From Chaetoderma sp. LZ-2023a (Eukaryota > Mollusca > Caudofoveata > Chaetodermatida > Chaetodermatidae): a stretch of DNA of 64,000 nt. A program made the translations under genes and the position numbers. This document shows, piece after piece, positions 1-32,745 of this stretch (positions within the stretch are counted from its first letter, which is position 1; every line of letters starts with the position of its first letter). Below the pieces are notes generated by a model that was not told where the DNA came from, did not search any database, and saw only the letters and a program-made list of their open reading frames with translations. The DNA lies in the NCBI GenBank assembly GCA_034401795.1, contig CM067367.1, positions 82,507,426-82,571,425 of the forward strand. Direction: 5' to 3'.

Positions 1-1736
1 GATTCCTTCGATGCAGAACTGAGCTCCGCCATTACAATCTCAGCGAGATGGCAACTATTCATGTGTAGAGATTTCAACTCCAAGCTGGGTAAACTCAGAA
101 TTGCGGACAGAAGTTCAGGACTTGGCTTATGCATGGAATCCTATACAGAGGGCACACGCAACAGCAATGGAGATGCACTGGTGGCATTCCTTAGTTCCAA
201 TCGCCTAATTGTCACAAATACGGCTTTCAAACACCCATGCCATCACCGGACAACATGGACTGGACACATTACTGATCGCAAAGCCCCAAAAGGTTCTAAG
301 GCTACAACAGCTGTCTTTCAACCAAATAGACTTCATACCATGTAAGACAGAAGCAAAACCCTTACTCTGGAACGCTCGTTCGTATGGAGGCACAGACCTC
401 AATTCTAACCATAAGCTAGTCACTACACGCCTTCAGATGAAGGATCTCTACCTAATATATAAACACCATACCAGGCAAGAGGGTAGAGTCACCTACAACC
501 TTCCCAAGCTCATCAGTGACACTGACACTCAAATGTCATACAAAAAAGCCCTCGGGTAGCAGATAGCTAACATCGATGTCAGCTCCGATCCAAATGAAGC
601 CCTAGCCAAAATACTGAAATCTATGGAATCACCCACTACCAGTACCATAGGTGTTCTTAAAAACAACCAAACTAGGTATACTGATGACCCTCTAGTAGTA
701 AAACTGTCAGCGGAGCAGAAAGCGTTATGGCTGCACATCTATCAAAGTGGCCAAAGTGAAGACCGCACCAAACTACACCGGGAGCGCAATATTATTCTGT
801 GCCACATTAGTGAACGCTTAAAAGATCTTGCTATCCAACAGGCAGACTCCCTAGCAGATGAAATCACTGCCACGGATGACTGTCACAAAATGTTTTGGGC
901 AGCCCGAGCCCTGAGAGTTACTCACTACACACCACCACTCACTGTACACAACTCTGAAGGCCATTTTATCGGGACTGACCAGGGAAAAGCCGATACGATC
1001 CGAGAATGGTTCATGGAACAGTTCACTGACAATGATGAGGAGCACTTGCACCCGTTCTCAGGAGACCCCAGGCAATTACTAACACCAATTAAAACAGCAG
1101 AAGTTGAGAAGGCACTTAAAGCCCTGAAAAATGGACGTGCACCTGGACCAGATGGCATGAGCAATGAACTATTCAAATATGCAAGTGACATTATCTCAAA
1201 ACCGATCATACACCTAATCAATTCGGCTTTTATGCACCACCTTCCCATTGACGCTGTAGGCCAAGGCACCCTTACCACACTACCCAAGCCCAAGAAGCCA
1301 CCTGGCCCCCAGCCAATATGTGACCCATTGTGCTCCTCAGCAGCATACAGAAAATCCTATCCAATGTTACTTTATGCCACATCCGGGATAAGATCGATTA
1401 TTTCACTGGATCATGTCAAAGTGGCTGCAAACATGGACGCAGCTGTGCAGACATTGTATGGGCTCAACGCATGCTTGTGTCGGTAGTCATGTCGAAAGAC
1501 TGGGACTTCCACAAAATGGGCATTGACATGTCACACGCCTTCGACACAATTAAACGCTCAAAGATCCTAAATGTACTATGCCAGGCCAGTTGCAATGAAG
1601 ATTAGCTATGACTAGTGAGACTACTGCTTGAAGACACCAAGCTGAGAGCACGAGTCAAGTCAGTGAAGTCTGTAGAGATTGAGACATCAATCGGCTCCCC
1701 ACAGGGAGATGGTCTATCTCTGGTGCTTTTCACCTG
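1..1736 (+). mobile_element. Non-LTR retrotransposon (LINE), 5' part: endonuclease and RT, decayed
   Basis: This is the APE-type endonuclease and the first half of the reverse transcriptase of a LINE, spread over at least four frames. The endonuclease shows RDFNSKLGK at 67-93, the TTWTGH stretch near 250-270 and SNHKLV near 400-420. The RT shows KNGRAPGPDG near 1127-1156, DIVWAQRMLVS near 1450-1485 and SPQGDGLSLVLFT at about 1693-1733. Premature stops at 557, 1484 and 1603 and the frame changes make it a pseudogene. The coding sequence stops at 1736 and resumes in frame at 31813, where the YADD-type catalytic box lies. P1 is the insertion that separates the halves. The clade is not assigned. 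Confidence 0.88.
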
Positions 1737-1927
1737 AGTAGTAGTGTCGGAATTAAAATGATACTGCCTCCCTCAACTGGCCGCCGTTCAGCGATCCGTG
1801 GCCATGGAAGGCCGTGGCAAATATAAAACTCCCGTGTGGCCCCCACTGTCTGGGAGAACCTCCTCAGGATACCAGCCAGTGGCCGGCCTCTCTCTCTCTC
1901 TATTCTGACGGGTATCCTGAGGAGGTG
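1737..1927 (+). repeat. P1 left terminal inverted repeat with internal hairpin
   Basis: The outer 68 bp match the complement of the right end. Further in, from about 1806, the sequence matches P2's left end (47930-47985; ATATAAAACTCC then CCCACTGTC). A 16-bp perfect inverted repeat, ACCTCCTCAGGATACC at 1858-1875 and its complement near 1912-1927, forms a hairpin around a short CT tract. Confidence 0.85.
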
Positions 1928-2006
1928 TTTCTATCTGTGAGACACTTTTCTACCTATCCTACCTATCCTACCCCACCTATCTCCTACCCCGTTGCTATTC
2001 CAGCCG

Positions 2007-2007
<1 letters not shown>

Positions 2008-2054
<47 letters not shown>
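2008..2054 (+). repeat. (TG)n microsatellite
   Basis: About 23 uninterrupted TG units inside the left subterminal region of P1. The 115-codon frame across 1814-2164 is only TIR plus this repeat and is not a gene. Confidence 0.97.
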
Positions 2055-2055
<1 letters not shown>

Positions 2056-2164
2056 GTGCTTTGACCCCACACTGGGGAGTGTTGCGTTGGGTCTTTATCT
2101 AACCTGGTCATATTACCCCTCCCCTAGTGTCTTACCTAGTTTCGAAATTTCAGGTAAGTTCTAG

Positions 2165-2258
2165 CGAGGTCTTTTGAGCGGATTTGAACCCCAGTCTGCA
2201 GCCTGAGAATCCTATGCATTTCAATACTCTATTGATTGACCCACCGCAACACCACTAT
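2165..2258 (-). repeat. tRNA-like (SINE-type) sequence
   Basis: On the minus strand, GGTGGGTCAATCAATAGAG resembles a degenerate A box and GGGTTCAAATCC matches the pol III B box, at tRNA-like spacing. No clean cloverleaf is evident. It is probably the head of a decayed tRNA-derived SINE inside P1. Confidence 0.5.
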
Positions 2259-2413
2259 AATCGTGCCTCTTAGTAATCTTATCTCTGAGCGTGAGTTGTA
2301 AAATTGCTGTTACTGCGTTATCTCGAAGTGACGTCAAGATCTAGAGGGACTGATAAGCGCAGCAATACAGCAATGAGAACACAAACTTATCAGCTATAAT
2401 TACTAATGTATAC

Positions 2414-2518
2414 ATGGCCGAGGTAGTTAATGCAGGGGTTCCTTGTTTTGTGTTTATTAGCAAACTTAAAATCACAGGTTCAAATCTCACTATTAGCATT
2501 TGTGGCTAACTCGGCCAT
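2414..2518 (+). repeat. tRNA-like element bounded by ATGGCCGAG / CTCGGCCAT
   Basis: GGCCGAGGTAGTTAATGC resembles the 5' half of tRNA-Ser/Leu, and GGTTCAAATCTC (2478-2489) is a B-box match. The outer 9 bp are perfect inverted repeats, like an acceptor-type stem. The middle is too AT-rich and irregular for a working tRNA. The rest of 2259-2754 shows no gene. Confidence 0.45.
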
Positions 2519-2754
2519 TTCTGGTCCGATTTTAAAATGGTAAACAGTTTTGAAATTCTCGCTTCATTCCGGTCCTAATCGGTGCCAAGAACGACGAGAA
2601 TGAAGTGATTTCTCGGTACAATATAAGCATACACTCTCTCACAATACTGACACGTGGATCTGACGCATGCGCATGCGTGCTTTGCGTTCTTACGGACTTA
2701 GCCATACCTTTCTCATAGGGCTTTATACATGCGCATGTACTATCCTATCCAGGG

Positions 2755-3265
2755 GGCATGCATGCACATCGCCCATTTAGAGACGGGCACCCACAGGGAT
2801 ATACACCCCCAGTACTGATCGCCAGCACCAAACATAATAGGGTCTGAATGCCCATTTAGAGACAGGCATCCACAGGGATATACACCACCTACAGGTACTG
2901 ATCGCCACACATAATAGGGTCTGAACACCCAGACAGGCATCCACAGGGTTATACACCACTCACAGTACTGATCACCACACATAATAGGGTCTGAACACCC
3001 ATTTAGAGACAGGCATCCACAGGGATATACACCACCCATAATAGGGTCTGAACGCCCAGACAGGCATCCACCCACAGGTACTGATCGCCACACATAATAG
3101 GGTCCGAACACCCATTTAGAGACAGGCATCCACCCACAGGTACTGATCGCCAGCACCACACATACTAGGTCTGAACGCCCAGACAGGCATCCACAGGTAC
3201 TGATCGCCACACATAATAGGGTCTAAACGCCCATTTAGAGACAGGCATCCACAGGGATATACACC
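2755..3265 (+). repeat. P1 subterminal minisatellite (about 77-bp unit, variable)
   Basis: Repeated units contain GGCATCCACAGGGATATACACC, then GTACTGATCGCCACACATAA and GGGTCTGAACGCCC. Some units are shortened. The array lies between the TIR and the POLB start. A regular 77-bp array of the complementary unit sits at the POLB end of P2 (62486-62840), and single units occur at the opposite end of both elements (31385-31445 and 48055-48112). Long frames here are translated repeats, not genes. Confidence 0.9.
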
Positions 3266-3559
3266 ATGAGTACTGTTGCACAGATTCGCGCTATTGCAAA
3301 GCAATTCAGCCGTAGAGGCTACTCTAAGGTCAAGAAAGCCGACCTGCTCCAGATGATCGACCAGATCTGTGCCGAGGAGTGGCAGAAGCGACTCTCACGA
3401 GCAATGAATATGGGAAGGTTTCGAGCGCTTACCAAGGATCCTTGGAATCCCCACAAGAAAGCGCAGTGGATACGTGAGTTTAGTCAGTTGGACGAGGAGG
3501 TGACTGCTAGCTTGCGAGCCAAGGCTGTAGCGAGGCCGATGGAGGCCCATTCACTGTAG
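3266..3559 (+). pseudogene. Duplicated POLB N-terminal module (first copy)
   Basis: A 97-codon frame beginning MSTVAQIRAIAKQF and ending in a stop after MEAHSL. It is nearly the same as the POLB start 357 bp downstream (3623), and the duplication includes the upstream GGGATATACACC leader. Residues 1-35 (LR-x-IAKQF-x2-R-x-YSK-x-KKADLLQMI) look like a SAP or helix-extension-helix DNA-binding fold; that is inference from pattern. The second copy continues into POLB, so this one is probably a dead tandem duplicate, though it could still make a 97-residue protein. Confidence 0.7.
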
Positions 3560-3622
3560 CACTTAACTCTCCAACGCAGGGGGCCACCGCACCCTATGCA
3601 GACATCCACAGGGATATACACC

Positions 3623-6600
3623 ATGAGTACTGTTGCACAGCTTCGCACTATTGCAAAGCAATTCGGCCTTAGAGTCTACTCTAAGGCCAAGAAAGCCGAC
3701 CTGCGCCAGATGATCGGACAGGTCCGTGCCGAGGAGTGGCAGAAGCAACTCTCCCAAGCAATGAATACGGGAAGGTTTCCAGCGCTTACGAAAGAGGATC
3801 CTTGGAATCCCCACAAGAAAGTGCAGCGGATACATGAGCGTCATCAGTTGGACGAGGAGGTGACTGCTAGCTTGCGAGCCAAGACTGTAGTGAGGCAGAT
3901 GGAGGCCCATCCACTGGAGTGCTTAACTCTCAAATGCAGGATCGTTTAGCAATGCCGAGGTCTGAGCCCAACCCGGAGCATAAGGGGGCCGAGGTCTGAA
4001 CCCTTAGCCTGGAGCATGAGGCGAGAAGGCGAACACATTCTCGACCAGCGTCTCGGCGAAAGGGAGACAGAGGATAGAGGACGCCAGTCAGTATGCTGGA
4101 CATTCTTCAGAGGTCTAGAAGGAGACCTCACAGGCCAGACCATGCAAAAGATCCAGCAGACTGTCCAGAACGCCTTCTACCTCCGCTACACCCATACCTG
4201 TCGCATCCGTTACATCGAAGATGGTAGGGTGATGCTCTTCCACAAGAATGCTCCAGGGAGCCCGTGGCTGAACACGATATGAGCAGCTCAGGACTGGGTG
4301 GCAGCAAGAGAGCAAGCGCGCCTCGACACAGACAATATCGATCGACCCAACACCAAGTGGGCTTTCGTTTGATCAATCAACATTGAGGTCAGGGCTGTCA
4401 TCAACCGCCAACCTCTGCTTGGGACAGGCCCCCTCCCAGACTGGCTATGAGAGAAGAAGAGTATGACTGCCCTCGACACCTACAGGGACAACATGTGTCT
4501 CTGGAGATGTCTAGCAATCCACTGAGGAGCGAGAGTGAGAGCTGATAGAAGTACAGCTCCTGCACGAGAGCTTGCCACACAGTTCTACAGCAAGACAGTA
4601 CCTGATGTCTGCAAGACCTCGCTGGATCAACTGGACAAGGTAGAGTTCTTCGCCAAGATCGGGATACGCGTGTATGAACCAGCTGAAGAGGGCAACTGGC
4701 ACATGATCAGGCAAGGGCTCACTACCATGACACCATGACCATCAGAGTGTGGGACCACCATGCCTTCTACATCAAGAACACGCCAAGCTGGCACATACAC
4801 TAGTCTGCAGTCACTGTCAGCAGAGGTTTGCACAGGCATGCAATCTTCAATGCCATGCTGATCACTATACAGGCAGCAAAACAAAAATCGTGTGTCATGG
4901 CAAGAAGGTTGAGGCGTCACAGTCTGTGTATGAGAAAGCCTTCTATCCGCCCCAACCATCCAGTTCAGTGGCTACTCGTTGGATCGAGTATGAGTTGAGA
5001 AACAGAGGCGTACACATACACCATGTACAGCGTGGGCACGGCGGTGAGCGTTGGATCGAGGGCGCTCCCGTAGATGGTCATGATCCGACCACCAACACCG
5101 TTTACCAGTTCCATGGCTGTCACTGGCACAGGTGTCCACAACATCAGCGAGGTGAGGATGCTGAACAAAGATACCGCAAGACAATCCTGAGAGAGGAGAA
5201 GCTGAGAGCCTCTGGATGCATGCTTGTGGTACAGTGGGAGTGCTGAATAAAACGCTGCCCAAGCGTCCCTAAACGAGTTCGGACTGTCCCATACCCACAC
5301 TTCATAGTTTACGACTTTGAAGCACTCCAAGATGGTATCAAGACTCATCCTACAGAGACTCTCACGATCCAGAGTGTGTCAGTTGGCTGCTCCTTAGAAG
5401 GCACCACGAGTGAGCCCACTCACCTCTGCAATCCTGACCCCAAAGAACTGATCAGAGAATTCATGCTGGAGATCCAACGGCGAGCATCTCTAATCCTGAC
5501 AAGGGTTAAGGCACAGTACATACGGACAGACCTGGACAAGCTCCCAAAGCGACAGATCAACGAGTGGTGTGACTAAGTACAGGTACAGTGAAAGTCGCCA
5601 AGAAGGCTAGTCAGACCATGTTCTTCATAACACCTGAGCTACGGTTTCTCGATGTGCTGAACTACCTCGACCCAGGAGTCTCGTACGAGATATGGGTCAA
5701 AGCTTACGGGTGTACACAGCAGAAGAGCTGGCTCCCATATGAATGGTTTGACACACATGAGAAGCTCAACTATCCAGGGTTTCCTGACTACTCAGCATGG
5801 TCATCTAAGCTCAAGGGTGGCTACCTCTTGACGCAAACAGAGTGGGAACAGTGTAACCAGACATGCAGCGAGCATGGAATGGAGACATTCGCAGACTGGC
5901 TGCGATCCTACAACAACCTGGACGTCAGTCCATTCACCGAAGCCCTAGAGCGGATGCGGGAGTTCTACACAGAATGAGAAATAGACATCCTCAAAGATGC
6001 GGTGTCTCTCCCATGTGTGTAGCTGCAGTACCTCCTACGTGGAACTGCTCAGCACATGCTGGATGTTAGCCTCTATTCACCGGACAAGGAAGCCTACGAG
6101 ATGCCGAAGGGTGCTGTTGTTGACGGTACCAGCATCATGTTCACCAGATACCACAAGGCCGGTGTGACTCGAATCTGCCAGAGTGAGTGTGTCTGCCAAC
6201 GTCTACTCGGCTATGACACAAATGCTCTGTACCTGTCAACAATGGCCAAAGAGATGCCATGTGGTAAGGAGAAAATGTGCCATTGGTCCGCTGCCAGTGG
6301 GGTAGCTAGCTTTAAGGAGGGTCTCCTAGCAGACAGTTGGTTTGGGTTTGCTGAGGTGGATATAGAGGTCCCCAAGGCTCTGTGGGCAAAGTTCGAAAGT
6401 TCGAGGAAATGCCTCCTCTCTTCTATACCCGCGAGATCCCGGTAGAGGCAATCTCCTCTGAGATGCTGGCATATCTAGGGCGAACAGGGAGAAAGTGGCG
6501 CACCACCCAGAAGCTGGTCGGTGCCCTCTCTGGCAAGCAGCGGCTGCTGTACGCCCCAACCCTCAAGTTGTATATAACCCATGGCCTGGAGATCACTGCT

Positions 6601-7136
6601 CTATACAGCACCATAGACTATGAGGCCAAGCTCCCATTCGAGTGGTTCATGGAGAATGTTACGGAGGCCCGCCGCTCTTGGCAGATCTCTTCAAACTCCT
6701 CGGCAACAGTGTCTATGGGAAGCTAATCGTGGCCCTAGAACATCATAGCAACACCAGCTTCACAAAGGATGAATGCATAGTAGACAAGGCCCTGCGTAGT
6801 GCATGGTTCGAAGATCTTGAGGAGATCGGTGAGCCATACGAGCTCCAGAGTCGCAAGCCGAGAATCACAATTCGAAGGCCCCTCCAGGTGGGGATAGCCG
6901 TTTATGAGCTTGTGAAGCTGCGAATGCTGGAGTTCTACTATGACTTCCTCGATCGCTATGTAGCTCATGACAGCTTTGAGTACCTGCAGATGGAGACTGA
7001 CTCTGCGTATATCACTATAGCAGGCTCCAACCTCGACGACGTCATTCGCCCTGAGATGCGAGCAGAGTACCAGGCTCATAAGCGGGACTGGCTAGCTTGG
7101 GACAAATGGTCTGGATGGAATCTGGGACTGTTCAAG
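3623..7136 (+). pseudogene. Polinton protein-primed DNA polymerase B, main part (broken)
   Basis: Replicative polymerase of P1, decayed into about eight frame segments. In order: SAP-like start (3623); a conserved N-terminal region with FHKNAPGSPW near 4235-4265 and a CLWRCLA-type segment near 4500; a C2H2 finger (CSHCQQRF...H, about 4812-4865); a nuclease-like VDGHDPTTNTVYQFHGC segment near 5070-5125; ExoI VYDFEAL near 5308; motif A GYDTNALYL near 6208; motif B LLGNSVYGK near 6693-6722; motif C METDSAYI near 6989-7010. Stops and frameshifts occur throughout. The coding sequence is cut at 7136 by the TG...CA insertion, continues at 10639, is cut again at 10823 by hAT1, and ends from 21867. 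The start follows the ATATACACC leader also seen in P2. Confidence 0.88.
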
Positions 7137-7688
7137 TGTAGTTCAGATTGACCGGTCGGGTACCGGCCATACCAGCTAGGCTGGGTACACGCCGCCCGTC
7201 TAGGATTCGTTTCCTGAACACACCCCTCTGGGTAGAGCTATAAGCGTATATAGGCCTATGGGAGAGAGAACGTGTCGAAAAACGACTAAGTTCGTTAAAA
7301 CGCATTATGCGTATGTGCGCGGCAGGACACTGTTTCTATGGAGCGCGTAGCTGTGACCTAGATAGGGTGGCGCTTATAGTGTACCGAGCTGGTACTCTGT
7401 AATTCTTATTGATTGTCTGTTCCCGTTAAATCCGGCATTAATCAAGACCAGAATTCGACGGGCTTTCTAAATCTGTCAACCATTTCAAAATCGGTTGAGA
7501 GAAGGCTGAGTTATCCAGGAAAACTCTTCTTGATTATCTTCAAACTATTGCCTTGACGTCATAATCACGTGGGCATAAAGCTTCTAGAATGCTCTAGAAC
7601 GCTCGACGACGCTATTATTAGGTTGTGCTGATTGGATGTTGCTCGAACGATGATCGGATGAAACCTGCGCCTGTGACGTTATGGAGAG

Positions 7689-7696
7689 TATAAAAG
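7689..7696 (+). promoter_or_regulatory. TATA box in the TG...CA element
   Basis: TATAAAAG preceded by GGAGAG and followed by a GC-richer stretch, about 550 bp inside the element. This fits a retroelement LTR promoter, with the start expected about 30 bp downstream. It is a sequence match only. Confidence 0.45.
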
Positions 7697-11945: not shown

Positions 11946-11984
11946 CACATTTTCTATGAGAATCTAGGAGAAACTGATTAACAT

Positions 11985-22043: not shown

Positions 22044-22618
22044 GCACTTCGTGCTGGCGTGCCAGGTAGTACAGTGCAGGCCGCCCCTCCGCCTCCACAT
22101 ACCTGTCAATCCTGTGAACATTTTTATCAACCAGTTAGGATCTGATGCACGCCATCGACCACCTTCCAGCTCACGAGGCTCATACAGGTACCGAACCAGA
22201 GCATCAGGTGGTAGACAATCCTCTCCCTTGTTCGCTCCACTAGAGCTGTGACCAGCAGAGTGTCTGATAGCCTCTACCGGCTTCTTCCCGATTAGCCTAG
22301 TAACCTCGCCATTGGATCTCTCCACCACAGCAGGCAGCCCTCTCACCCATACTCTAGAATGTTCACTCGGCGCGGCCATTTCATGAGCATATTGGTGTGG
22401 GAACAGTCTCTCTGCCAGTGTCCGATTCCACTGCTCAACGATAGCCTGGGCACGGTGATGCCCTACCTCGCCTCGCCTAACTGCCACACCGTGTTTTCGC
22501 ATGAGGGCTGCAGTCTCTCCTCTGAACTCCTTACCCTCATCCACCTGCAACAATTCCGGCCACCAGAGGGGATTTTCCGAAGCCTCGTAGACACCCTGGA
22601 ATGCCAGAGCTTATAGTA
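21973..22618 (-). pseudogene. Polinton integrase (rve family), N-terminally truncated and frameshifted
   Basis: Retrovirus-type DDE integrase that would join P1 to the host genome. Visible: YEASENPLWWPELLQVDEGK carrying the second catalytic Asp, then AIVEQWNRTLAERLFPHQYA carrying the Glu. The part with the first Asp is absent: homology stops near 22618, only 40 bp from the end of the neighbouring capsid-type gene, so a deletion probably removed the N-terminal half. Near 22120 a frameshift separates DPNWLIK from the C-terminal RPALYYLARQHEVPRRPFV segment; that frame ends at 21973. The C-terminal end overlaps convergent POLB. The enzyme cannot be active. Confidence 0.85.
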
Positions 22619-22656
22619 GTGGTGGCCGCTGCAGCGGTGACGACAGGAGTCGTGCT

Positions 22657-23731: not shown

Positions 23732-23744
23732 TTTAAGTTCTGGG

Positions 23745-24356
23745 TATAAAGAGGGGTTAAACGGCTGCCATGTTTGGTAAAGTTCTCCCGCAGATTGTCT
23801 ATAGGCAGCAGGACAAGTCAGCATGACAGCCACGGCATGCACTGTCCTACTGTGACAGGGTCCGAGGACTGCTTAGTGACATCAACATTATCCATGAGTG
23901 AGCCAAGGTCACACCTCCGTCTGATGCGGAGATACTGGCCGCCATAGAGGAAGGAGCACGAGCTTATAGAACAAAAGAACTCCTGACTTGGATACTCTAC
24001 CGGAAGTTTGACAGCATCTAGGGCAGGGCACTCAACCTACCTCCTGTGGCCCAAACCAACAGTCCTGTTATTCTAGCTCTCCAAAGGGCGAGGGTCGAAC
24101 CCAAAGATCTACTAACGGTTGGGGAGTGGCTGCCGTATTTAGCCTCCATAGCTAGGAAGAGCGAGATATACTGGATAGCGTCCAGTCTGGAGAAAATAAC
24201 TACTTCAGGGAGGAGGTCAGTGCCACTGTAGTGGACAGCCATGACACCAATCATGCAGAAGGTCCTCAGGAGGGTCTCACTGTTGACTGCAAGGAGGCTG
24301 TTGAGCACATCTTTAACGAAAGATGGGCAGGAAATTGGACAGTAATCTGCCAGCAT
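23745..24356 (-). pseudogene. Polinton gene of unknown function upstream of the capsid-type gene
   Basis: Two minus-strand frames joined by a shift near 24020. The first (MLADYCPISCPSFVKDV...) is 113 codons; the second carries PSQEFFCSISSCSFLYGGQY then LRIRRRCDLGSLMDNVDV and stops after QCMPWLSC. A later stretch reaches the capsid-type gene start without a gap. It may be the N-terminal part of one larger structural gene continuing into 22657-23731, or a separate gene ending in the GTTTAA motif. There is no reliable family match from sequence alone. Confidence 0.4.
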
Positions 24357-24643
24357 TTCTGAAATTCCCAGATAACTACCAGGACTACCTCATCAAATCC
24401 ACTCGCAAGTCAGATGCTAGTCGCACATGGAAAAAGTGGATCTTCCATGAGTAGTTCAAGAAGAAGAGAGCCCTAGACTCTGACCCTCAGTGGGTAGAGT
24501 TTATGCGACAGGCTTCTGACGAAACTGACGAAGTTCATCAAGCTTCTGACGAAGTTCCTCAAGCTTCTGACGAAGGTCCTCAAGCATCTGACAAACTAGC
24601 ATAGACTGCAGACGAAGTTCCTAAGCCCTCTGATGAATGAAAA
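24323..24643 (+). pseudogene. Small P1 gene with (DEVPQAS)n repeats
   Basis: Starts MGRKLDSNLPAFLKFPDNYQ and continues to WKKWIFHE before a TAG at 24451. After the stop the same frame continues with Q-A-S-D-E-x2 heptads, about five units, a second TAG, and a final stop near 24643. About 105 codons. The N-terminal half is basic, the repeat half acidic. It overlaps the start of the minus-strand gene at 24356. I do not recognise the family; the repeat region may be a recent expansion. Confidence 0.42.
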
Positions 24644-24718
24644 AAAAGTTGCGCCAGCTGCGACAGTCTGTCAGCAATGACACGTAGAGCAGGCTAGTTT
24701 CCTGGCTGGATTCAGCTT

Positions 24719-25576
24719 CTAGGTGACGGTCTGCACCTTTTCCAGAGATGGCTTGAAGTGTGATAGCTCACCTGTCTCCTTGTTGCTGAAGATGAAGCGG
24801 TACAGCTGAGCTGCCCTCTGTACACCAGCGATAAGGTCATTGAGGGTTAGACTGCCGTATATTTCACGAGCAGGGCACGTCCACACTTGGAGCTGAAGTA
24901 TAGCAACCGGGCATTGTGGCGGATGTCCGGTGAGATCTCGTGGGTGTACTTCTGAAAGAGGATGAAGACAGTTATCTTTGTGTGCCGGATGCACCTGGTG
25001 ATGTTGCTGAGGTAGGTGACTGTCTTCTGGTCCATTGCAGGGTCATCGATAACTAGAACAAGTGGTTCTGTCAGTCGGGCTGCTAGCAGCTTCTCAACCA
25101 GTGCTTGCAGGTTCTGCGTCTTGGTGATTGGGCCATTGTACCATTGATCATTACTGTCAACTGCCTCAGCGGCGGAGTCAGACACCAGAAGGATGTATTG
25201 CGAGTGTAGATGTTCAGCCAGGAGAGTCCGCAGCAAGATGTTATTCCCATGTCGTGGCAGGGCAATGATCAGCACCACCTGGCAAGCATCGGCGGGCCTA
25301 CTGTCGAATGGTACACACATGCGTGCGGAGGATGGTTAGCACTCGGTCGGCGGTAACCTCGTCTATATCTGGGAGACTAAACAGCAGTACTTCATGCACC
25401 AGCTCTTTAACCTGCAGAGCGGGGAATCCTGCATCTCCGGCGGATACGAAGGATGCGATGGAGGCGTCAAGCATGAAATCCCAGGAGCAGCTGAGAAGAT
25501 AACGTAGAGGGACTGTGTCAGCACCCACAGTGTCTAGTACATCCAGCATCTGTATGATACATGCACCGGAAGCCAT
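24719..25576 (-). pseudogene. P-loop ATPase-like Polinton gene (packaging ATPase candidate)
   Basis: Three overlapping frames of about 285 codons: MASGACIIQMLDVLDTVGAD, then CVPFDSRPADACQVVLIIAL and PRHGNNILLRTLL, then GSLTLNDLIAGVQRAAQLYR. The middle frame has a hydrophobic strand followed by a P-loop-like position, a Walker-B-like LVLVIDDPA, and a later ITVFILFQ strand resembling the sensor of A32/FtsK-type packaging ATPases. The Walker A is not canonical (RHGNN instead of GxGKS), so either the residues decayed or the assignment is wrong. Two frameshifts break the gene. Position among capsid-type genes supports a packaging role. Confidence 0.5.
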
Positions 25577-25589
25577 GACTATCCTGTGG

Positions 25590-26081
25590 TCTTAAACGGC
25601 AAACCAAAGAACCCTGACTTCATCACCTCTGGTTGCCGGAAACTGGCGGTAGCACCTGTTTGGCCATTAACAGTGATATGGCTCAGGCCAAGGTTGCCTA
25701 TCTTGAGATTCTCTCCATCCTGTTGGAATGAGCTCCATGTTTCAGGAGATCCTTAACCAGGTCCTGTGTAAAGATTCAGCCATAACCTTGATGGCTCCTG
25801 CCTCATCGACTCCAAGCATACCTCGCATCGTCGCCCTCTCCTTTATGCCCAACCCCTTGTATACAGTCTTGGCCTTGTTAATGGCCGATTGTCCTACCGT
25901 ATCAGTGTTCCCGATGAGATCTTGGGCTGGGATGGTACCTTGGATCTCCCACGGGTCTCCCTTCTCATCATCTAGGAAGGAGATAGGGGCAACAGTGTCC
26001 TCTGAACCGAGGTGTGCCTCGCCCAAGTGAGCAAGATCGCCTAGCTCTTTGCTTTCTAGGTCTGTGAGTGGCCTGAGAGTC

Positions 26082-26145
<64 letters not shown>

Positions 26146-26163
26146 TGGCTTAAACCTACTAGT
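25590..26163 (-). pseudogene. Conserved Polinton protein, about 190 aa, interrupted by (TA)n
   Basis: Begins MTSRFKPSVY at 26163, is invaded by a TA microsatellite, and continues LTDLESKELGDLAHLG, then DDEKGDPWEIQGTIPAQDLI and GIKERATMRGMLGVDEAGAI. After a frameshift near 25750 the likely C-terminus is NLKIGNLGLSHITVNGQTGA and a final FFGLPFKTTG. P2 keeps the first 30 codons without the TA expansion (61230-61320), where the deletion breakpoint lies. Function unknown. The start overlaps the stop of the upstream small gene by a few bases in P2, showing compact virus-like packing. Confidence 0.6.
26083..26141 (+). repeat. (TA)n microsatellite inside a P1 gene
   Basis: About 29 TA units. P2 has GTATATGACTATGACTC at the same place, so P1 has an expansion of a short ATAT seed. 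Confidence 0.97.
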
Positions 26164-26372
26164 CATACCCCCAGTGAAATAGTTGGGCTTAGGAGGACCA
26201 CGCAGTCGGCCAAGGGAATAGGTAGCAGTGCTCTCTGCAGGGGCACACCTTGTGGGCGGTCCACCATTCCCGGGCATTGGCGATCATCAGTCCACGTGCT
26301 CAACTATGGGCTAGACACCGCCCTCCGGCACGCCATGCCTCATATGCTGCCGCGGTCTCATGATCAATCTTT
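26156..26372 (-). pseudogene. Small Cys/Trp-rich Polinton protein, P1 copy
   Basis: Counterpart of the open 74-codon P2 gene at 61013-61237. Here the start ATG is TTG or ATG out of frame, a stop occurs after the first 15 codons, and about 15 bp are missing around the CREGQYPEHC region. Remaining recognisable text includes AREWWTAHKVCPC-like and CYLFPWPTAWSS-like segments in shifted frames. Confidence 0.6.
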
Positions 26373-26387
26373 CACTATTCCGAGGGG

Positions 26388-26651
26388 TTAAACGTAGGCG
26401 ACGATGATCTCAGCCATTGCAATCATTGCTAGCCCTAGAACCATGGCCACCATTAGTGTAACACGTTCACCCATGATCTTGGCGGCAACAGTGTAGGAGG
26501 CACCACTGAGGGTGATATTTGGGATTGGGTGACTTATTCCAAGACAGTTCCTGGCCACCCCACTCACCACTGTAGTGAGGACAGCCGCAGTGGCAGCAGG
26601 AAGAACCTCATTTCCCCCTGTCATCTTAACCATGGCCACATTCGCCACCAC
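26388..26651 (-). CDS. Small two-segment membrane protein of P1
   Basis: 87 codons, MVANVAMVKMTGGNEVLPAA and so on, ending IAMAEIIVAYV. Two hydrophobic stretches (about residues 17-40 and 55-80) are separated by a short loop HPIPNITLSGAS, predicting a two-pass membrane protein. P2 has the same gene at 60730-60993 with the same length and no disablement; differences are scattered substitutions. It follows directly on the acidic small gene (26653-26907) with a 1-bp gap, so the two look co-transcribed. Function unknown. Confidence 0.7.
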   Translation of the reverse strand: MVANVAMVKMTGGNEVLPAATAAVLTTVVSGVARNCLGISHPIPNITLSGASYTVAAKIMGERVTLMVAMVLGLAMIAMAEIIVAYV

Positions 26652-26652
26652 G

Positions 26653-26907
26653 TTACTGGTGACATGGACTGCCAGAGGTTTTGCTCTGGTCAGTAACTTC
26701 TGTGCCTTGGTTCACAGCTGGTTCTTCACCTTCTGAAGACTCGCCTGGCTCTCGGGCAGTTGCTTCACGATATGTACCATTGACGTCATTGTTTAAGCAT
26801 GGAGTATACAATGCGCTTAAACATCTGCCTCCCCTGTCGAGAGAGCTAATAAGATCTTCCCAGTCTGTGTCTGCCAGGTGGCCGAGTTGGTACACAGGAA
26901 TATTCAT
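26653..26907 (-). CDS. Small acidic Polinton protein
   Basis: 84 codons starting MNIPVYQLGHLADTDWEDLI and ending with a Glu/Ser/Thr-rich tail (EPGESSEGEEPAVNQGTEVT). No membrane segment; probably disordered in its second half. The start lies 23 bp from the divergent start at 26931, with TTGAGACATCTTAGAC between them. The P2 copy (60505-60727) is frameshifted and has stops. I do not recognise a family. Confidence 0.6.
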   Translation of the reverse strand: MNIPVYQLGHLADTDWEDLISSLDRGGRCLSALYTPCLNNDVNGTYREATAREPGESSEGEEPAVNQGTEVTDQSKTSGSPCHQ

Positions 26908-26930
26908 CTCTCTATTGAGACATCTTAGAC

Positions 26931-27428
26931 ATGTCCGGGCTCACGCTATGCGAGAAGTACTATGATGTCTTCCGGAGGGAGTTGAAGGACTACAAGAAGA
27001 AGGCACCAGATGAGCTCGCTCAGCTCTCCGGTGCTGAGCTGACAGAAGAGCTGACAGCTGTGAAGCTCTATCTGGGCTTTGGTAAGAGACAGATCGGCTT
27101 CCTCGAATACCTTATCATGGGCGGGAGTATCGTCGAGCAGCTCCTGTGAGCTAAAGGTTTCTACAAGGATCGGGAGTATCTGTCAGATGTGTTCCAGCAT
27201 TTGCAGACCGCCATGGCCTCACCGGACTCAGAGCTGAACAAGGCTCTGCGATACTACAAGCTGGAAAAAGGATGTGCTGCCGAACCTTCCAGCCCTTGGA
27301 TGTGCATGTTGGCAGTAGGTATAGGGGCTGTAGGGCATGCCAAGCTGGTTCAGTGTCTCACCGTGGTCCCCACCGCTACTGTAGAGAGTCAGGATAGTCT
27401 TATAACTGATTTGCTAGTGGCGGAGTAG
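26931..27428 (+). pseudogene. Conserved helical Polinton protein, one stop
   Basis: Starts MSGLTLCEKYYDVFRRELKD, Lys/Glu-rich and strongly helical, with one TGA at 27148-27150 (after IVEQLL) and then continuation FYKDREYLSDVFQHLQTAM to a stop at 27426-27428. About 165 codons. P2 carries the first 85 codons on the minus strand (60143-60481) and lacks the second half. It is divergently paired with the acidic gene at 26907. Unknown function; a core or DNA-packing protein would fit the charge pattern, but that is a guess. Confidence 0.6.
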
Positions 27429-27451
27429 GCTGATCCCGAGCGCCATGATAG

Positions 27452-28106
27452 CTAGGCCTGACACCACACGTAGAGCTGCCACGGGAGCGGTGTTGTTTCA
27501 ACTGGCTGCAGTGTCGGGGCGCCTGGAGCTGCAGTATCGACTGGCTGCAGTGTCAGGGTCGGAATGACTGTATGGCTCGTACTATGCATAGGTGCGTTGA
27601 TGGCAGTGTTAAAGCCGAAGTGGACACCGGGGGAACTCCGCTCGACTATCATGTTGTTATAGCCCATGACTTGGAGGTCCTCGATGTTCACGATCATGTT
27701 GCTCGGAACCAACCGTAGGTTTGGTGAAATAGCAAAGTCAAGTTTGCGATGGGCCTTCTGCAACCCCTACTGGAACTTAGCCGCAGCTGGGTCTGTGCCA
27801 TAAGGAGGCGGTAGCACAGTGCTTCTAGTGACTGGTTGATCCGAATGATCCCTGCTTCTGTGAGGCCTGAGGTGGTGTGTGGGACAAAGTACTTCCACAC
27901 ATCTGGATTGTTCTGCCGGAAGCCAGTGATGTGCATATTTTGGACCAGCGCTCCAGGGTCAGAGTCTGGATCGAACGAGAATGTCGCTGTCTTCCGTCGG
28001 GGGGTTCGATAGGGGAAATTCTGAGTAGTCACATCTCGGGTCACCGTACATAACCCCTAGACCGCTGTTGTCACCACCATGCCACCGATAGTCTGGCTGA
28101 GCGCTG

Positions 28107-28161
<55 letters not shown>

Positions 28162-28639
28162 GTCTGCTGGCCACTGAGACGCTATGACTGTTGAGCTGTG
28201 GGTCGAAGGCGTTTGTATCAGGGAGGCTTTCACCCAGCTCATGGAGGATTCGTCACACCGTGAAGTACACGTGGAATCTGAGACAGCTGGCAATGAGCAC
28301 AACTTCAGGAGTACCAGAATAGGAGTGAAGCATGGTGGAACTTACTCCACATCCTGCCGTGGCACACCACACGGCAAAGTTCAGCTGCTGATTCCAGTAT
28401 GAGAGGCTTGGAGCAGCCATCCAAGTATGAGCTTGCTTCGCATCCTTGATGGTGATGGGGTGGTTGGTCAGAGGTCGTGGGTTGACGGAGAAGCTGGTCC
28501 GGGATCGTCCATCCACTGTGATGGAGAATGGTGTTGGCTCTGGTATATCATCCAGTAGACCTCTCAGGCCAGTCAAGGGTGTACGCAGGAGGGGCGTTTG
28601 GCTCTGGATGACTGTCGTGAGGTTCAGTGGGAAGGCCAT
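27452..28639 (-). pseudogene. Large conserved Polinton protein (about 440 aa), P1 copy
   Basis: Starts MAFPLNLTTVIQSQTPLLRT; contains SFSVNPRPLTNHPITIKDAK and APSLSYWNQQLNFAVWCATA, then RFHVYFTVRRIL. Near 28160 a (CT)n expansion replaces a short GAGAG seed seen in P2 and shifts the frame. Later segments lie in two more frames and include RLVPSNMIVNIEDLQVMGYN and a repeated P-V-D/E-T-A-A-P-G-A-P-T-L-Q motif. The P2 copy at 58845-60162 has a hydrophobic C-terminal helix. The family is common in metazoan Polintons as I recall; I cannot assign its role. Confidence 0.75.
28109..28158 (+). repeat. (CT)n microsatellite inside a P1 gene
   Basis: About 25 CT units. The P2 gene has only TACAGAGAGAGTTC at this position, so this is an expansion in P1 that breaks the large conserved gene. 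Confidence 0.96.
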
Positions 28640-28678
28640 CGATACTGGTGTTCTTAAAGCTACCGTACAGGCAGCACA

Positions 28679-29302
28679 CTATTTGTAGTCGTCTCGACTC
28701 CAGAGACCAGCGAGGCAACCTCGCCGTAACATCTCGTTTTTTAACTCCTCCATATCAACCCGCCCGCTGGAGCCTTTGAGGTATTGCTGTCGCACTTTAG
28801 GTTTCTCCGTGCAGCACAGGGCTTGGACCTTCAATATGTGGTGGTACTCTTCATTGGTGACCTGGCCATCCTCGAGAGCTTTGCTGACAGACTCGTCGAT
28901 AGTCTGTAGAATACTCTGTGCCAGTGCCACGTACTTAGCATGCTTCTCCAGCCTCCTTGTGATCTGCAGCTGCCCCGCCCAAAGCCCGTGGTCAAGACAG
29001 TGGCGGCTAGTGTCACACCAGCCAGTGGGATGGCGACGATGGCCCCCCACCCCTGTAACGACAGTGGCCACAGCTGCCACCCCAGCACTGGCTCCAATCA
29101 CACCCACAACAGTGGCTGTACGTGTGAGGAAATTGTAGGCTTCTATTGCCTCTGCGTTCTGCTGTACTTTTCTGCCTCATGGGCGAGATTCTGTCTGATG
29201 GTATCTATCTGCTGGAGTTGCCAGCCATGGATGGTACTGCCCTTGTCAGCCATCAGGGCGGGGTATATTTCTGGTTTCATCCGCCACTCTGATTTTGCCA
29301 TA
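28679..29302 (-). pseudogene. Conserved Polinton protein with central hydrophobic region
   Basis: Starts MAKSEWRMKPEIYPALMADK near 29302, continues GSTIHGWQLQQIDTIRQNLA, then after stops and a frameshift near 29100 a hydrophobic Ala/Val/Gly-rich segment (GASAGVAAVATVVTGVGG) and a charged helical C-terminal part (ESVSKALEDGQVTNEEYHHI) ending LAGLWSRDDYK at 28679. About 205 codons. P2 keeps only the last 40 codons (58640-58803). The layout (helix, membrane-like hairpin, helix) recurs in Polintons; function unknown. Confidence 0.65.
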
Positions 29303-29315
29303 GTATACTTGGAGA

Positions 29316-29844
29316 TTAAACCTGCATCACCTGCATAATCTGCTCATGAGTCCTAGAAGGGTACATTTTGGAGAGCCTGGCGAACCGTGCCAGCTTGCTG
29401 GTGTCGAGACAGACGTCTCTTAGACAGAGGTCATCCAGCACTATGTCAGGTGCCAGTAGCTTCCTGAGACGTAACATCTGGAAATTCACCTTATGACCAA
29501 GATAGTAGGTCAGCCGCTGGATGGCTTTCTTGGTCTTACACTTCTGCGCCATCTCCTCTTCCCACTGTTTGACCTCTGGCTCATCCTCATCTGTGAAGAC
29601 ACCTGGCTCGTCGTCGCATGTGAAGACATCTGGCTCATCGTCGGATGTGAAGACATCGTCCCCACTGACTCTCTGGCTCATCCTCGTCTGCCGTCTCCGC
29701 TGCATTGTCCGTGGTCTCTGCTACATCTAGCTCATCATCGTATGTGAATACATCATCCCGCTTACTCTCTGGCTCATCCTCGTCCGCGGTCTCCACTGCA
29801 TCGTCTGCTAGGACTGATAGCTTTCCATAGGTTGATGTTGGCAC
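29316..29844 (-). pseudogene. Acidic-repeat Polinton gene
   Basis: Two frames. The upstream part repeats A-E-T-A-D-E-D-E-P-E-S, the downstream part repeats (D)DVFT-x-DDEP (about four units) and then turns helical and basic (KKAIQRLTYYLGHKVNFQML) to a stop at 29316. A frameshift lies near 29690. In P1 this gene appears fused, by a deletion, to the truncated gene that starts at 30064. P2 lacks it. The repeats are likely a disordered acidic arm; function unknown. Confidence 0.55.
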
Positions 29845-30064
29845 CTGCGAGATACTCTATCACGTCCCGGCCGACTTCTACCAGTGAGCGGCTGTGTGCA
29901 CTGCCTGGGGGTTGATGTAGCATATCGGCGTGTATGTATGTTGTGCCCCACAGGGGCACCTCAAAGAGGACCCATTCTACATGGTACTGTACAACCCGTC
30001 TCCCCTCTAGAGAGGGTGAGATTACGTTCTCACCACCGGAGAGCAGCAGTCGGACAATCGGCAT
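29811..30064 (-). pseudogene. Small Polinton gene (MPIVRLLLSGGE family), 3'-truncated
   Basis: Starts MPIVRLLLSGGENVISPSLE, then VEWVLFEVPLWGTTYIHADM and VGRDVIEYLAGANINLWKAI. In P2 the gene continues about 35 codons past SPS to a stop (with DIRS2 inserted in the middle); in P1 the homology stops at SPS and runs into the acidic-repeat gene. Length in P2 without DIRS2 is about 125 codons. The start lies 38 bp from a divergent gene at 30103. Predicted beta-rich and soluble; unknown function. Confidence 0.65.
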
Positions 30065-30102
30065 GGTTATATGTCTTGTTTAAACCCCTCCTATAGCATG
30101 CT
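30065..30102. promoter_or_regulatory. Compact divergent promoter region in P1
   Basis: The 38 bp between two divergent starts contain TTGTTTAAACCCCTCCTATA. P2 has the same sequence inverted at 49503-49540. TTTAAMCCCTC also precedes starts at 23731 and 61013, so it may be a Polinton promoter or late-type motif. Confidence 0.4.
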
Positions 30103-30987
30103 ATGGAACCCATATTTGCTCACTTGGCTGGTCTTGCTGACCTGGCAGATGTGTACGCAGTTGATGCTGCCAAGGTAGAAGAGAGTGATTGCATGTCATT
30201 CGCCCTACAGTACAAAGCAAGCTCAAAGGCATTCTACCTCCACCCCATTGGTGGTGATGGGGTGGAGCTGCTCACAGACCTCGAGGATGTGTCGAAGGAG
30301 CGCCTGGGTCGCAACATAGATGGCCACAAGATCGTGTTTCGGTATGATTTCCCGAAGAGGAAGTACATCCTCGAGCCGTTGATTGAGCTCTCGGACACAG
30401 AGGTGGCAGACATCAACACCCTAAATAACGACCTCAGCTTTCATCTGGCCAAACCCTATTCAAGCGGTGCCCCGCCGATGGCCCATGATGGCCTGCTGTT
30501 GACCCAGGCAAAAAACCTGCAGTTCATATTTGAGAAGAATGAAGTGTGGTACCGCGCTGGACCTGGAGGTGACTGGCAAACATGGTTGCCCCTATATAGG
30601 CCTCCCGCAGTCATTGACATAGGGGTTACTTCCCTCTCCACTGTTGTGAAAAAGGATGGGACAGTTCGATAGCTCTACAATCAGGGATCATCCTTCCTCA
30701 CCTACATAGGTGAAGATGTTTCCCTGACGAGGGTGGGTCACCAGATTGGGGTTGCAGGTGGAAAGCTCCTGCTGCATCGTCCATTCGATGGACCAGAAGA
30801 AGCTGTTAACATCCAGGAGGGCACCCTATGGGTAGATGGTGTGTCACATGTCTCCAAAGTCAAGGGTGCTGTTAAACTGCTTCAGCGAGTCGGACTCACT
30901 AGCCTGCAAACGACTCATATAGTCCTAGAGCTACATTTCTTAGCCGGCGGCAGAGTGAAGCAGCTAGCCCCTGCCCCGAGGGGATGA
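30103..30987 (+). pseudogene. Conserved Polinton protein (about 290-320 aa), one stop
   Basis: Starts MEPIFAHLAGLADLADVYAV and includes DFPKRKYILEPLIELSDTEV and TKNLQFIFEKNEVWYRAGPG-like text; a TAG at 30670-30672 interrupts after KDGTVR, and the frame resumes to 30987 with YIGEDVSLTRVGHQIGVAGG and VKGAVKLLQRVGL. P2 carries the same gene on the minus strand (48560-49502), also broken but at other positions. No membrane segment; mixed alpha/beta. The shared ancestor was evidently intact. I do not recognise a family beyond Polinton. Confidence 0.65.
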
Positions 30988-31081
30988 AGATCACTATCGA
31001 TCCGGATGGAACAGGGCTCGATCTGGCACAGATATTTCTCGAGGGGTTCACTCTGTTAAGTTTAACTCTTCATATATAGCC

Positions 31082-31224
31082 ATGATTCTCATCATACTGC
31101 TCGTGCTGTCGTCTACATCAGTGGCGCAGGGCGCTGAGACTGCCATGATATTGGATGCCAAGTGGGCCCACTTCCGGAATGACCCCAAGTACAATCCGGG
31201 CTTTAGCCTCCTCCCAGGTTAGCA
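31082..31224 (+). pseudogene. Secreted-protein gene at the P1 right end, internally deleted
   Basis: MILIILLVLSSTSVAQGAET is a classic signal peptide with an Ala-Gln-Gly cleavage area, followed by MILDAKWAHFRNDPKYNPG and an early stop. P2's copy (47896-48552) has an open 218 codons; relative to it, P1 lost about 240 bp between the YNP codons and the later sequence SLVPGERC. It lies 95 bp downstream of the preceding gene and is preceded by GTTTAACTCTTCATATATAG. Confidence 0.7.
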
Positions 31225-31314
31225 TTGTCAAGGTAGATGGAAGCCTCTATGGATGGTTCCATCATGCCGATGTGACTCTGGCAGAGACTACGTGTTTGTC
31301 TGAGCCTACACAGA

Positions 31315-31315
<1 letters not shown>

Positions 31316-31369
<54 letters not shown>
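31316..31369 (+). repeat. (AG)n microsatellite
   Basis: About 27 AG units; P2 has AAATAGAGAGGC at the same place, so this is an expansion of a short seed. The frame over 31155-31451 is repeat-derived. Confidence 0.96.
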
Positions 31370-31371
<2 letters not shown>

Positions 31372-31446
31372 CCAGCCCTGTGGTTGATGGCGATCAGTGG
31401 TGTATATCACTGTGGAGGCTTGCCCCTAAAAGGGCATTCAGACCCT

Positions 31447-31812
31447 GGTAGTAGTAGTGTGATACTACCTCCCTGGCAGCCATTCGCTGATCCGTGGTGG
31501 CCCCGCAATCTATGCCCCAGGGATTGAGAGGGCAGTGGTATCATTTGCCTAGTAGTAGTGTCCGAATTAAAATGATACAACCTCCCTCAACTGGCTGCCG
31601 TGGCCCCCACCGTCCTCTCAATCCCTGAGGCCTCCATCTAGAGGCATACCAACCACCTGTCTCAACAACCCTGGCCTTCATCTAGAGGCATACACTAACC
31701 ACATGTCTCACCAACCTATGCCCCAGGGATTGAGAGGGCAGTGGGGGCCATGGATCGCTGAACGGTGGCCAGTTGAGGGAGGTGGTATCATTTTAATTCG
31801 GACACTACTCCT
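31447..31812. repeat. P1 right terminus: stacked foldback units ending in the TIR
   Basis: 31447-31550 begins AGTAGTAGTGTGATACTACC and ends GGTATCATTTGCCT; 31551-31812 begins AGTAGTAGTGTCCGAATTAA and ends with its complement, so it is a 262-bp unit carrying both Polinton ends. An inner inverted repeat (CCTATGCCCCAGGGATTGAG with CTCAATCCCTGAGG) strengthens the foldback. The outermost 68 bp pair with the P1 left end. Confidence 0.82.
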
Positions 31813-32745
31813 ACCTGCTACCTATCTACCGCATTGAAATCTGTGCAGGAAAGTTCCACAAGACCAAACACGCACCACCACACACACCCCCCCCCCCCCC
31901 CCCCCCCCAGTGTCAATACTGGGAATGCCGCTAGAGATGGAATAGGCCGACGATGTGGACTTCATAGATGTGGAAAGAAACCCCTTGACGAACTTCTCCC
32001 AATAGCTACAAGCATCCTAAAAATTGAGAATCTCTTTATGAATGAATCCAAAACAGTGTTCACCCACATATACATGTCGACAAAGCACGAAACTATAGAA
32101 AATGACGACCCACTTCATGGTGGCGAATCATGGAGGAAAAGTAAAATCCTGGGCTCACTGCTTTGCAGTACTGCTGACATTTCTGCACGCTGCATCATGG
32201 GGAACATAGCTTTCCAGTCCTTCTGGAAGCCCATGGATTCGTAGATCAATGATGCCCTTGATAAAGAGGCTACGTTTATACAATGCAACCTGCGTATCCT
32301 TGATGCTGTATAACTGTAACAGCTGGGCAGCTCCAAAGGCAACTCTAGACAAATTCGATGCCTGCCACAGCAAACACCTACGCACCATCACTGGACACCG
32401 ATGATCCAGACAGCATAATTTACAACGATGTACTATACAAAATGTGCAATACGTCGCTGTTGTCTGTAAATGTCACCCAGCAAAGATGGTCCATGTTTGG
32501 CCATGTGCTAAGGATGCCAGAAGAGACACCAGCACAGAGAGCCTTGGAATTCGCCCTACTCGGAGCCAGCAAATACAAAGCAAGGAGAAGACTTCATTGC
32601 ATAAATCTGCTAAGCGTGTTATGAAGTGATCTCAAGAAAGCAGGACTCGGTACACTCAAGTCAAGAATGGACCTGAGGAAGCTAAGGATTTCGGCTGAGG
32701 TCAAGACACAGTGGGCAAAAGTGAAGAAGGACTGATTGCAGCTGT
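31813..32745 (+). mobile_element. LINE, 3' part (RT catalytic box onward)
   Basis: Continuation of the element at 1-1736. After the target duplication the frame reads CYLSTALKSVQE, then an insertion-like poly-C run (31887-31909), then the catalytic box as (A)DDVDFID near 31948-31965, followed by IENLFMNESKTVFTHIYMST. Further downstream there are scattered fragments such as NCNSWAA-like and RITGHRW-like text in shifted frames to about 32745. Heavily frameshifted. The tail at 32700-32790 (ACACAGTGGGCAAAAGTGAA...) recurs at 38765-38860, so a related LINE 3' end lies there too. Confidence 0.82.

What the first reader, a model, noticed from the sequence alone, without database searches (positions are those of the whole stretch)
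1..32745. Four-layer nest with an exact empty site at every layer
LINE > Polinton P1 > hAT1 (and a TG...CA element) > DIRS1. At each boundary, removing the insertion (plus one target duplication where present) restores a reading frame: LFT-CYL in the LINE, GLFK-EFEG and GLRM in POLB, RYN-DLQ in the hAT transposase. This gives a strict order of events and independently proves all element ends.
Basis: seen in the sequence. Interest (0 to 1): 0.8.

Follow-up and report, generated by a model that had tools for sequence, protein, structure and literature searches.

The report
Nested jumping genes, four layers deep
A mobile element is buried inside another, inside another, inside a fourth, and undisturbed relatives elsewhere in the same animal-like genome show each insertion point to the base; it is a clean record of the order of events but an ordinary kind of structure.

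Summary
The window lies in a 2.44-Gb assembly whose related copies show the uninterrupted state at every layer. LINE site: 7 of 7 fetched copies run on without the Polinton. POLB: 19 of 19 fetched copies lack the TG..CA element, 16 with flanks overlapping by exactly 4 nt (CAAG); at the hAT site 14 of 19 overlap by exactly 8 nt (CTACGCAT). hAT transposase: 6 of 6 copies run through the DIRS site. Protein pieces searched apart land side by side on homologues.

Corrections: hAT1 ends at 21857, not 21858. The TG..CA element is most likely a solo LTR: elsewhere a primer-binding-like flank follows one LTR and a purine tract precedes another. Nesting does not order hAT1 against the LTR. The LINE runs to about 32792. 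The Polinton duplication is 5 bp in 4 of 4 copies with both ends found (of 16 examined), within the published 5-6 bp. DIRS sites carry RGAN and no duplication.

Order: LINE, Polinton, then {LTR element; hAT}, then DIRS in hAT. Nested transposons are a common kind; interest is low. No reads across the junctions were available.

The parts
1..1736 (+). LINE (non-LTR retrotransposon), left part; continues upstream of the window
   Evidence: 88.9-93.1% identical to 7 fetched genomic copies; copies carry RVT_1 and match LINE-1 ORF2 and R2 chains by sequence
31813..32792 (+). LINE, right part, to its 3' end
   Evidence: 88.5-92.2% matches ending at window 32782-32792; a second tail at 38774-38867 ends at the base matching 32792
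1732..1736 (+). 5-bp target duplication ACCTG, left copy
   Evidence: uninterrupted sites
31813..31817 (+). 5-bp target duplication ACCTG, right copy
1737..31812 (+). Polinton P1 with its inserts; terminal repeats 1737-1803 and 31746-31812 (91%); about 15.5 kb without the inserts and their duplications (arithmetic from these coordinates)
   Evidence: sister copies carry DNA_pol_B_2 (PF03175) and rve (PF00665)
6624..7136 (+). POLB piece A, ends ..GLFK
   Evidence: its residues 18-171 align to residues 413-566 of an open frame in sister copy L021; no Pfam hit of its own
7137..10634 (+). probable solo LTR (TGTAG...CTACA) of an LTR retrotransposon, 3498 bp, flanked by CAAG
10635..10823 (+). POLB piece B (KLEFEG...RGLR)
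   Evidence: aligns to L021 residues 566-626
10824..21857 (-). hAT1 DNA transposon with its insert; ends TAGGCTTGCACGATT / AATCGTGCAACCCTA; CTACGCAT duplication at 10816-10823 and 21858-21865
20262..21272 (-). hAT transposase exon 1 with BED zinc finger (exon end read by eye)
   Evidence: zf-BED 1.2e-7; homologues
19340..19475 (-). hAT transposase piece X as searched, ends ..PRYN (its first residues lie before the acceptor site, about 19463)
11988..12268 (-). hAT transposase piece Y, (D)LQVLEAL.., with the dimerisation domain and an internal in-frame loss of 462 bp relative to two sister copies
   Evidence: Dimer_Tnp_hAT 3.3e-12
12269..19339 (-). DIRS1-like retrotransposon: inverted terminal repeats, internal complementary region at 12519-12622, main frames on the minus strand
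21858..22001 (+). POLB piece C (LRMRNQG...)
   Evidence: aligns to residues 379-426 of sister L023 and 625-640 of L021
22026..22610 (-). Polinton frame in the place of the integrase; degraded, no rve hit in the window copy
   Evidence: no rve; rve 1.2e-9 in a frame of sister L017 opposite to its POLB

Best explanation
This is a stack of successive transposon insertions. A Polinton integrated into the reverse-transcriptase region of an existing LINE copy with a 5-bp duplication (ACCTG). Into its POLB gene went an LTR retrotransposon (4-bp duplication CAAG), later reduced to one 3.5-kb solo LTR by LTR-LTR recombination, and, in unresolved order, a hAT transposon (8-bp duplication CTACGCAT). Last, a DIRS1-like retrotransposon recombined into the hAT transposase gene at a site ending GGAGAT, without duplication. 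Shown: ends, duplications, uninterrupted paralogous sites, protein continuity, LTR flank signals at other copies. Inferred: the enzymes (Polinton integrase, retroviral-type integrase, hAT transposase, tyrosine recombinase) from family membership, and the LTR recombination step.
For: LINE site uninterrupted in 7 of 7 fetched copies, of 39 other matches. LTR site uninterrupted in 19 of 19 fetched Polinton copies, of 39 other matches: 16 with exactly 4 nt of flank overlap; in L014, L026 and L027 the alignment ran 1-11 bases past the edge. hAT site: exactly 8 nt overlap in 14 of 19; in 4 an alignment stops short of the join but the flanks lie within about 55 bp; in 1 (L025) the far flank was not seen. 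DIRS site: 6 of 6 hAT copies read TTGGAGAT|CG[TC]TGT. DIRS ends are fixed independently by DIRS-2 at 49752-58371 in a second Polinton copy, whose empty site in P1 is exactly 29853|29854. Proteins apart: POLB pieces A and B meet on the same residue in L021, L023 and L016; hAT pieces X and Y leave room for exactly Asn and the split Asp codon in 11 of 14 homologues. LTR: right flanks of two unlinked copies are alike in 46 of 51 bases and start AGTGG; left flanks of two others are alike in 45 of 51 and end in a purine tract. Nearest-copy identity is higher for the inner elements: LINE 88.9-93.1% and Polinton flank A 85.6-94.4%, hAT 93.8-99.1%, DIRS 99-100%.
Against: No reads across the junctions. 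The Polinton's right terminal triplet is CCT where sister copies have ACT. LINE and Polinton identities overlap, so they do not by themselves date one before the other, and the comparison uses best-scoring copies over different lengths. In three homologues the hAT pieces do not show the exact spacing: P0186 is one residue longer (its X alignment stops early), P0162 and P0180 align only X and the far part of Y. Solo-LTR reading: no pol gene was seen beside an LTR copy, and of nine left flanks first compared only one pair, probably one event, was alike.
Confidence: 0.96

Rival explanations
1. Assembly artefact: unrelated repeats were joined wrongly.
For: All parts are high-copy (2906, 6749, 4938 and 881 first-look candidates), the usual setting for misjoins; no reads were available.
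Against: A misjoin would not give, at each of four sites, both flanks at adjacent bases of paralogues with duplications of 5, 4, 8 and 0 bp as each class predicts.
Confidence: 0.02
2. The 7137-10634 element is a non-autonomous Ginger-like DNA transposon (TGTNR ends, 4-bp duplication), not a solo LTR.
For: Ends TGTAG..CTACA and 4-bp duplications fit the Ginger pattern in PMC2836005 (passages); shortened copies with the same ends exist.
Against: The inverted match of its ends fades after about 8 bp, where Ginger groups have about 40-270 or 50-180 bp. Shared flanks just outside the ends of other copies look like a primer-binding site and a polypurine tract, which a DNA transposon would not have.
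Confidence: 0.07
3. The LTR element or the hAT was already in the Polinton when it moved into the LINE, rather than inserting at this locus.
For: Nesting alone does not exclude it; a Polinton copy carrying one of them could have moved.
Against: None of 19 fetched sister copies carries the LTR at this site, and none of the 18 in which both flanks were seen carries the hAT; they are 19 of 39 scored matches, a small part of the family.
Confidence: 0.05

Closest known systems
Polinton/Maverick DNA transposons
   Same: Terminal inverted repeats with AGT-type ends, POLB, rve integrase on the opposite strand, about 15.5 kb without inserts, short duplications. PMC8097293 (passages): (AGT)2//(ACT)2 ends and 6-bp duplications; PMC4046053 (passages): 15-20 kb; PMC8547959 (passages): 5-6 bp for mavirus and Mavericks.
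   Different: 5 bp in 4 of 4 copies with both ends found, of 16 examined: the low end of the published range.
DIRS1-like tyrosine-recombinase retrotransposons
   Same: Inverted terminal repeats, internal complementary region near the 3' end, RT and recombinase frames, no duplication; PMC3266345 (passages).
   Different: Sites carry RGAN (NTCY on the element's strand), where 23 of 28 elements in that overview begin and end with NTT.
hAT transposons (ZBED type)
   Same: 8-bp duplication, TAGGSTTGCACGATT ends, BED finger and dimerisation domain.
   Different: The window copy has an apparent intron and a 462-bp in-frame loss relative to sisters L067 and L068.
Solo LTRs of LTR retrotransposons
   Same: TG..CA ends, 4-bp duplication, flank signals at other copies.
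   Different: Long LTR (3.5 kb; forms of 1.6-2.0 kb exist); clade not determined.
Published analyses of nested insertions (REANNOTATE, PMC2672092; nested plant LTR elements, PMC6911290)
   Same: Same logic: interruption gives relative order. Seen as search listings with the start of the abstract only.
   Different: Here one locus with five element classes in an animal-like genome.

Membership tests
Polinton/Maverick | Family B DNA polymerase | tested here: met
   PF03175 at 2.4e-9, above cut-off, in sister L016; sister frames L021 and L023 and the window's piece A gave no Pfam hit, and L021 no PDB match
Polinton/Maverick | rve integrase | tested here: met
   PF00665 at 1.2e-9 in sister L017; the window copy is degraded, no rve hit
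Polinton/Maverick | Terminal inverted repeats with AG(T).. ends | tested here: met
Polinton/Maverick | 6-bp target duplication | tested here: not met
   5 bp in 4 of 4 copies with both ends (window, one each on C16, C17, C15); since 5-6 bp is published I do not take exactly 6 bp as defining
Polinton/Maverick | Capsid genes and packaging ATPase | tested here: inconclusive
   Pox_A32 at 0.0013, below cut-off, at 24850-25335; capsid genes not tested
hAT | 8-bp duplication and terminal inverted repeats | tested here: met
hAT | hAT transposase with dimerisation domain | tested here: met
   zf-BED, Dimer_Tnp_hAT, homologues
DIRS1-like | RT plus tyrosine recombinase | tested here: met
   DIRS-2 frames: RVT_1 8.9e-22, Phage_int_SAM_1 4.5e-4 just below cut-off; DIRS-1 pieces match them at 39-91% identity; DIRS-1's own pieces gave no Pfam hit
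DIRS1-like | Inverted terminal repeats and internal complementary region | tested here: met
DIRS1-like | No target duplication | tested here: met
LTR retrotransposon (solo LTR) | TG..CA ends and 4-6 bp duplication | tested here: met
   CAAG in the window; CTAG at L058 and L061, which share a flank and may be one event; none across L065
LTR retrotransposon (solo LTR) | Primer-binding site and polypurine tract beside LTRs of other copies | tested here: met
   two copies each; a tRNA-Lys-like match of the site is recalled, not tested
LTR retrotransposon (solo LTR) | gag-pol between two LTRs | not tested
LINE | Non-LTR reverse transcriptase | tested here: met
   RVT_1 1.8e-11 and 7.3e-11 in copies L006 and L007, 1.1e-6 just below cut-off in L003; the window frame itself no hit

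The most novel reading that the evidence does not exclude
The Polinton family here is a distinct lineage: it duplicates 5 bp rather than 6, and at 5 of the 16 ends located the terminal repeat is followed back to back by its own reverse complement (palindromes of 262-277 bp), which could mean a hairpin-based step in its replication or integration.
Probability: 0.15. Interest if true: 0.35.

Novelty: new member of a known kind. Interest (0 to 1): 0.2.

Why it matters
It is a clean worked example: five classes of mobile element in one stack, each insertion resolved to the base by paralogues, so ends, duplication lengths and relative order can be used to annotate these families in this genome. It also points to a recently active DIRS family: 33 of 39 other scored copies print as 100% identical over 205 nt at 366 bits against 370 for the window's own, about one base apart. 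It answers no open question.

Tried and rejected
Pfam on the window's own Polinton, DIRS-1 and LINE frames: mostly no hits because they are broken; sister copies were used instead.

Ginger-like reading of the TG..CA element: taken up from its ends, dropped after the flank test. An early comparison of nine left flanks found only one shared pair; it lacked the C11 copy that later matched L063.

GAGAT as a strict DIRS target: 16 of 16 in a set of 14 fetched sites plus two in the window, the 14 chosen with a query that included the flank. A copy upstream of the window ended TAGAA, and 20 sites chosen with a query inside the element (20 of 39 other matches) gave only R-G-A-N (A 20 of 20, G 18 of 20, R 19 of 20; L103 and L095 are preceded by DIRS-like sequence and are kept in the count). 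Rejected as selection bias.

Polinton 6-bp duplication with one mutation: rejected because three other copies also show 5 in the same register; 12 of the 16 copies examined did not show both ends.

Organism: not identified. A protein search with the DIRS-2 RT gave 188 hits, 120 shown; the named ones include Patiria miniata, Xenopus laevis, fishes and Mytilus.

Published 5-bp Polinton duplications: searches, then passages; 5-6 bp is in print.
Full report
Setting. The window is G000:C9:82507426-82571425 of a 2.44-Gb assembly in 2753 contigs. All elements are high-copy there, so each claimed junction can be tested against sister copies that lack the insertion. Each search scores only its best 40 candidates. 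Because a Polinton is virus-like, its POLB pieces were searched apart, never joined.

Layer 1, Polinton in LINE. With window 1500-1760 as query, 39 other matches end at query base 233-238, 34 of them at 237, which is window 1736. All 7 fetched copies (L002-L008, of 39) run on without the Polinton: 6 read TTTTCACCTG at the site (L004 CACCTC), then CTACC in three, CTGCC in two, CTATC and ATACC in one each; the window's right flank after its ACCTG reads CTACC. Three copies' frames match RVT_1 and one matches LINE-1 ORF2 and R2 structures by sequence. The LINE's 3' end is at about 32792.

Polinton ends. P1 has (AGT)3 at 1737 and ACTACTCCT ending at 31812; sister right ends read ACTACTACT. In copies with both ends found the duplications are ACCTG (window), AATGA, GTTGT and GTATT: 5 bp in 4 of 4. 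Sixteen copies were examined (the window, 10, 2, 3); 12 did not show both ends. Published values are 6 bp (PMC8097293 and PMC10045372, passages) and 5-6 bp (PMC8547959 and PMC12220804, passages).

Layer 2a, the TG..CA element. Of 39 other Polinton matches, 36 end exactly at 7136. In 19 of 19 fetched copies the element is absent; in 16 the two flanks overlap by exactly 4 nt (CAAG), in L014, L026 and L027 the local alignment ran on by 1-11 bases. Piece A ends and piece B starts on the same residue of sister frames in L021, L023 and L016. The element itself is a repeat with fixed ends: 36 of 39 others start exactly at 7137 (a 40th, partial and inverted, left out) and 36 of 39 end exactly at 10634. 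L058 and L061, which share 132 nt of left flank, are flanked by CTAG on both sides; L065 is not flanked by a duplication, as expected of one LTR of a longer element. Outside the right end, L065 and a C11 copy share 46 of 51 bases beginning AGTGG; outside the left end, L063 and another C11 copy share 45 of 51 bases ending in a purine tract. These are the places of a primer-binding site and a polypurine tract, so I read the element as an LTR, and at 7137-10634 as a solo LTR. No pol gene was inspected.

Layer 2b, hAT1. Flank B ends at 10823 and flank C starts at 21858 with exactly 8 nt overlap in 14 of 19 sister copies; in L018, L022, L026 and L028 an alignment stops short of the join but the flanks lie within about 55 bp; in L025 the far flank was not seen. 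Pieces B and C overlap by two residues in L021 and L023, as an 8-bp duplication allows.

Layer 3, DIRS in hAT. Six other hAT copies match up to window 12268 (five exactly, one three bases further), and all six read TTGGAGAT|CG[TC]TGT, the window's right flank at 19340 being CATTGT. Transposase pieces X (..PRYN) and Y (LQVLEAL..) were aligned apart to 14 homologues: in 11 the spacing leaves exactly Asn and the split Asp codon (for example X44 on 317 and Y1 on 320 of P0157); P0186 is one residue longer with its X alignment ending early; P0162 and P0180 align only X and the far part of Y. DIRS-2, inserted in a second Polinton copy in the same window, has the same ends, and P1 is its empty site, the flanks meeting at 29853|29854.

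DIRS target. In 20 low-end flanks chosen without regard to the flank the last four bases are R-G-A-N, which fits recombination at a short shared motif as in the published 3-bp circular-junction model (PMC3266345, passages). The element's other end is GGAGAA.

Order and age. Nesting gives LINE before Polinton before hAT before DIRS, and Polinton before LTR. Nearest-copy identity is similar for LINE (88.9-93.1%) and Polinton flank A (85.6-94.4%) and higher for hAT (93.8-99.1% over 113 nt) and DIRS (99-100% over 205 nt). These are best-scoring copies over different lengths, so this is only rough agreement. The LTR copies (87.4-90.6% over the first 1.2 kb) do not order it against the hAT.

Verdict. 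Nested transposons resolved by empty sites are an established kind of evidence; nothing here needs a new mechanism.

Noticed in passing
about 48016-62827 (inverted), with 49752-58371: A second, inverted Polinton copy (P2) carrying its own DIRS element; it lacks the part matching about P1 4788-26136, which includes POLB.
   Followed up: partly
12156/12157: The window's hAT lacks 462 bp present in sisters L067 and L068, in frame.
   Followed up: yes
31551-31812; L039:1706-1982; L051:2942-3209; L053:2071-2347; L092:2412-2684: At 5 of 16 Polinton ends located, the terminal repeat and its reverse complement stand back to back (262-277 bp); L087 has a shorter pair and L032 a partial one.
   Followed up: partly
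63120-64000 and G000:C9:82492099-82500291: Ends of two further DIRS copies of the same family at the window's right edge and upstream of it.
   Followed up: partly
42882-44732 (+): A second hAT-type transposase with an open 616-aa frame (DUF659; Dimer_Tnp_hAT just below cut-off).
   Followed up: no
2739-3266 and 3242-3940: Tandem repeats of about 70 nt and a duplicated stretch of about 340 nt inside P1; related sequence lies in P2.
   Followed up: no
about 20261-19464 (-): The hAT transposase has an apparent intron (GTAAGT..CAG by eye) rich in simple repeats; homologues are continuous across it.
   Followed up: partly
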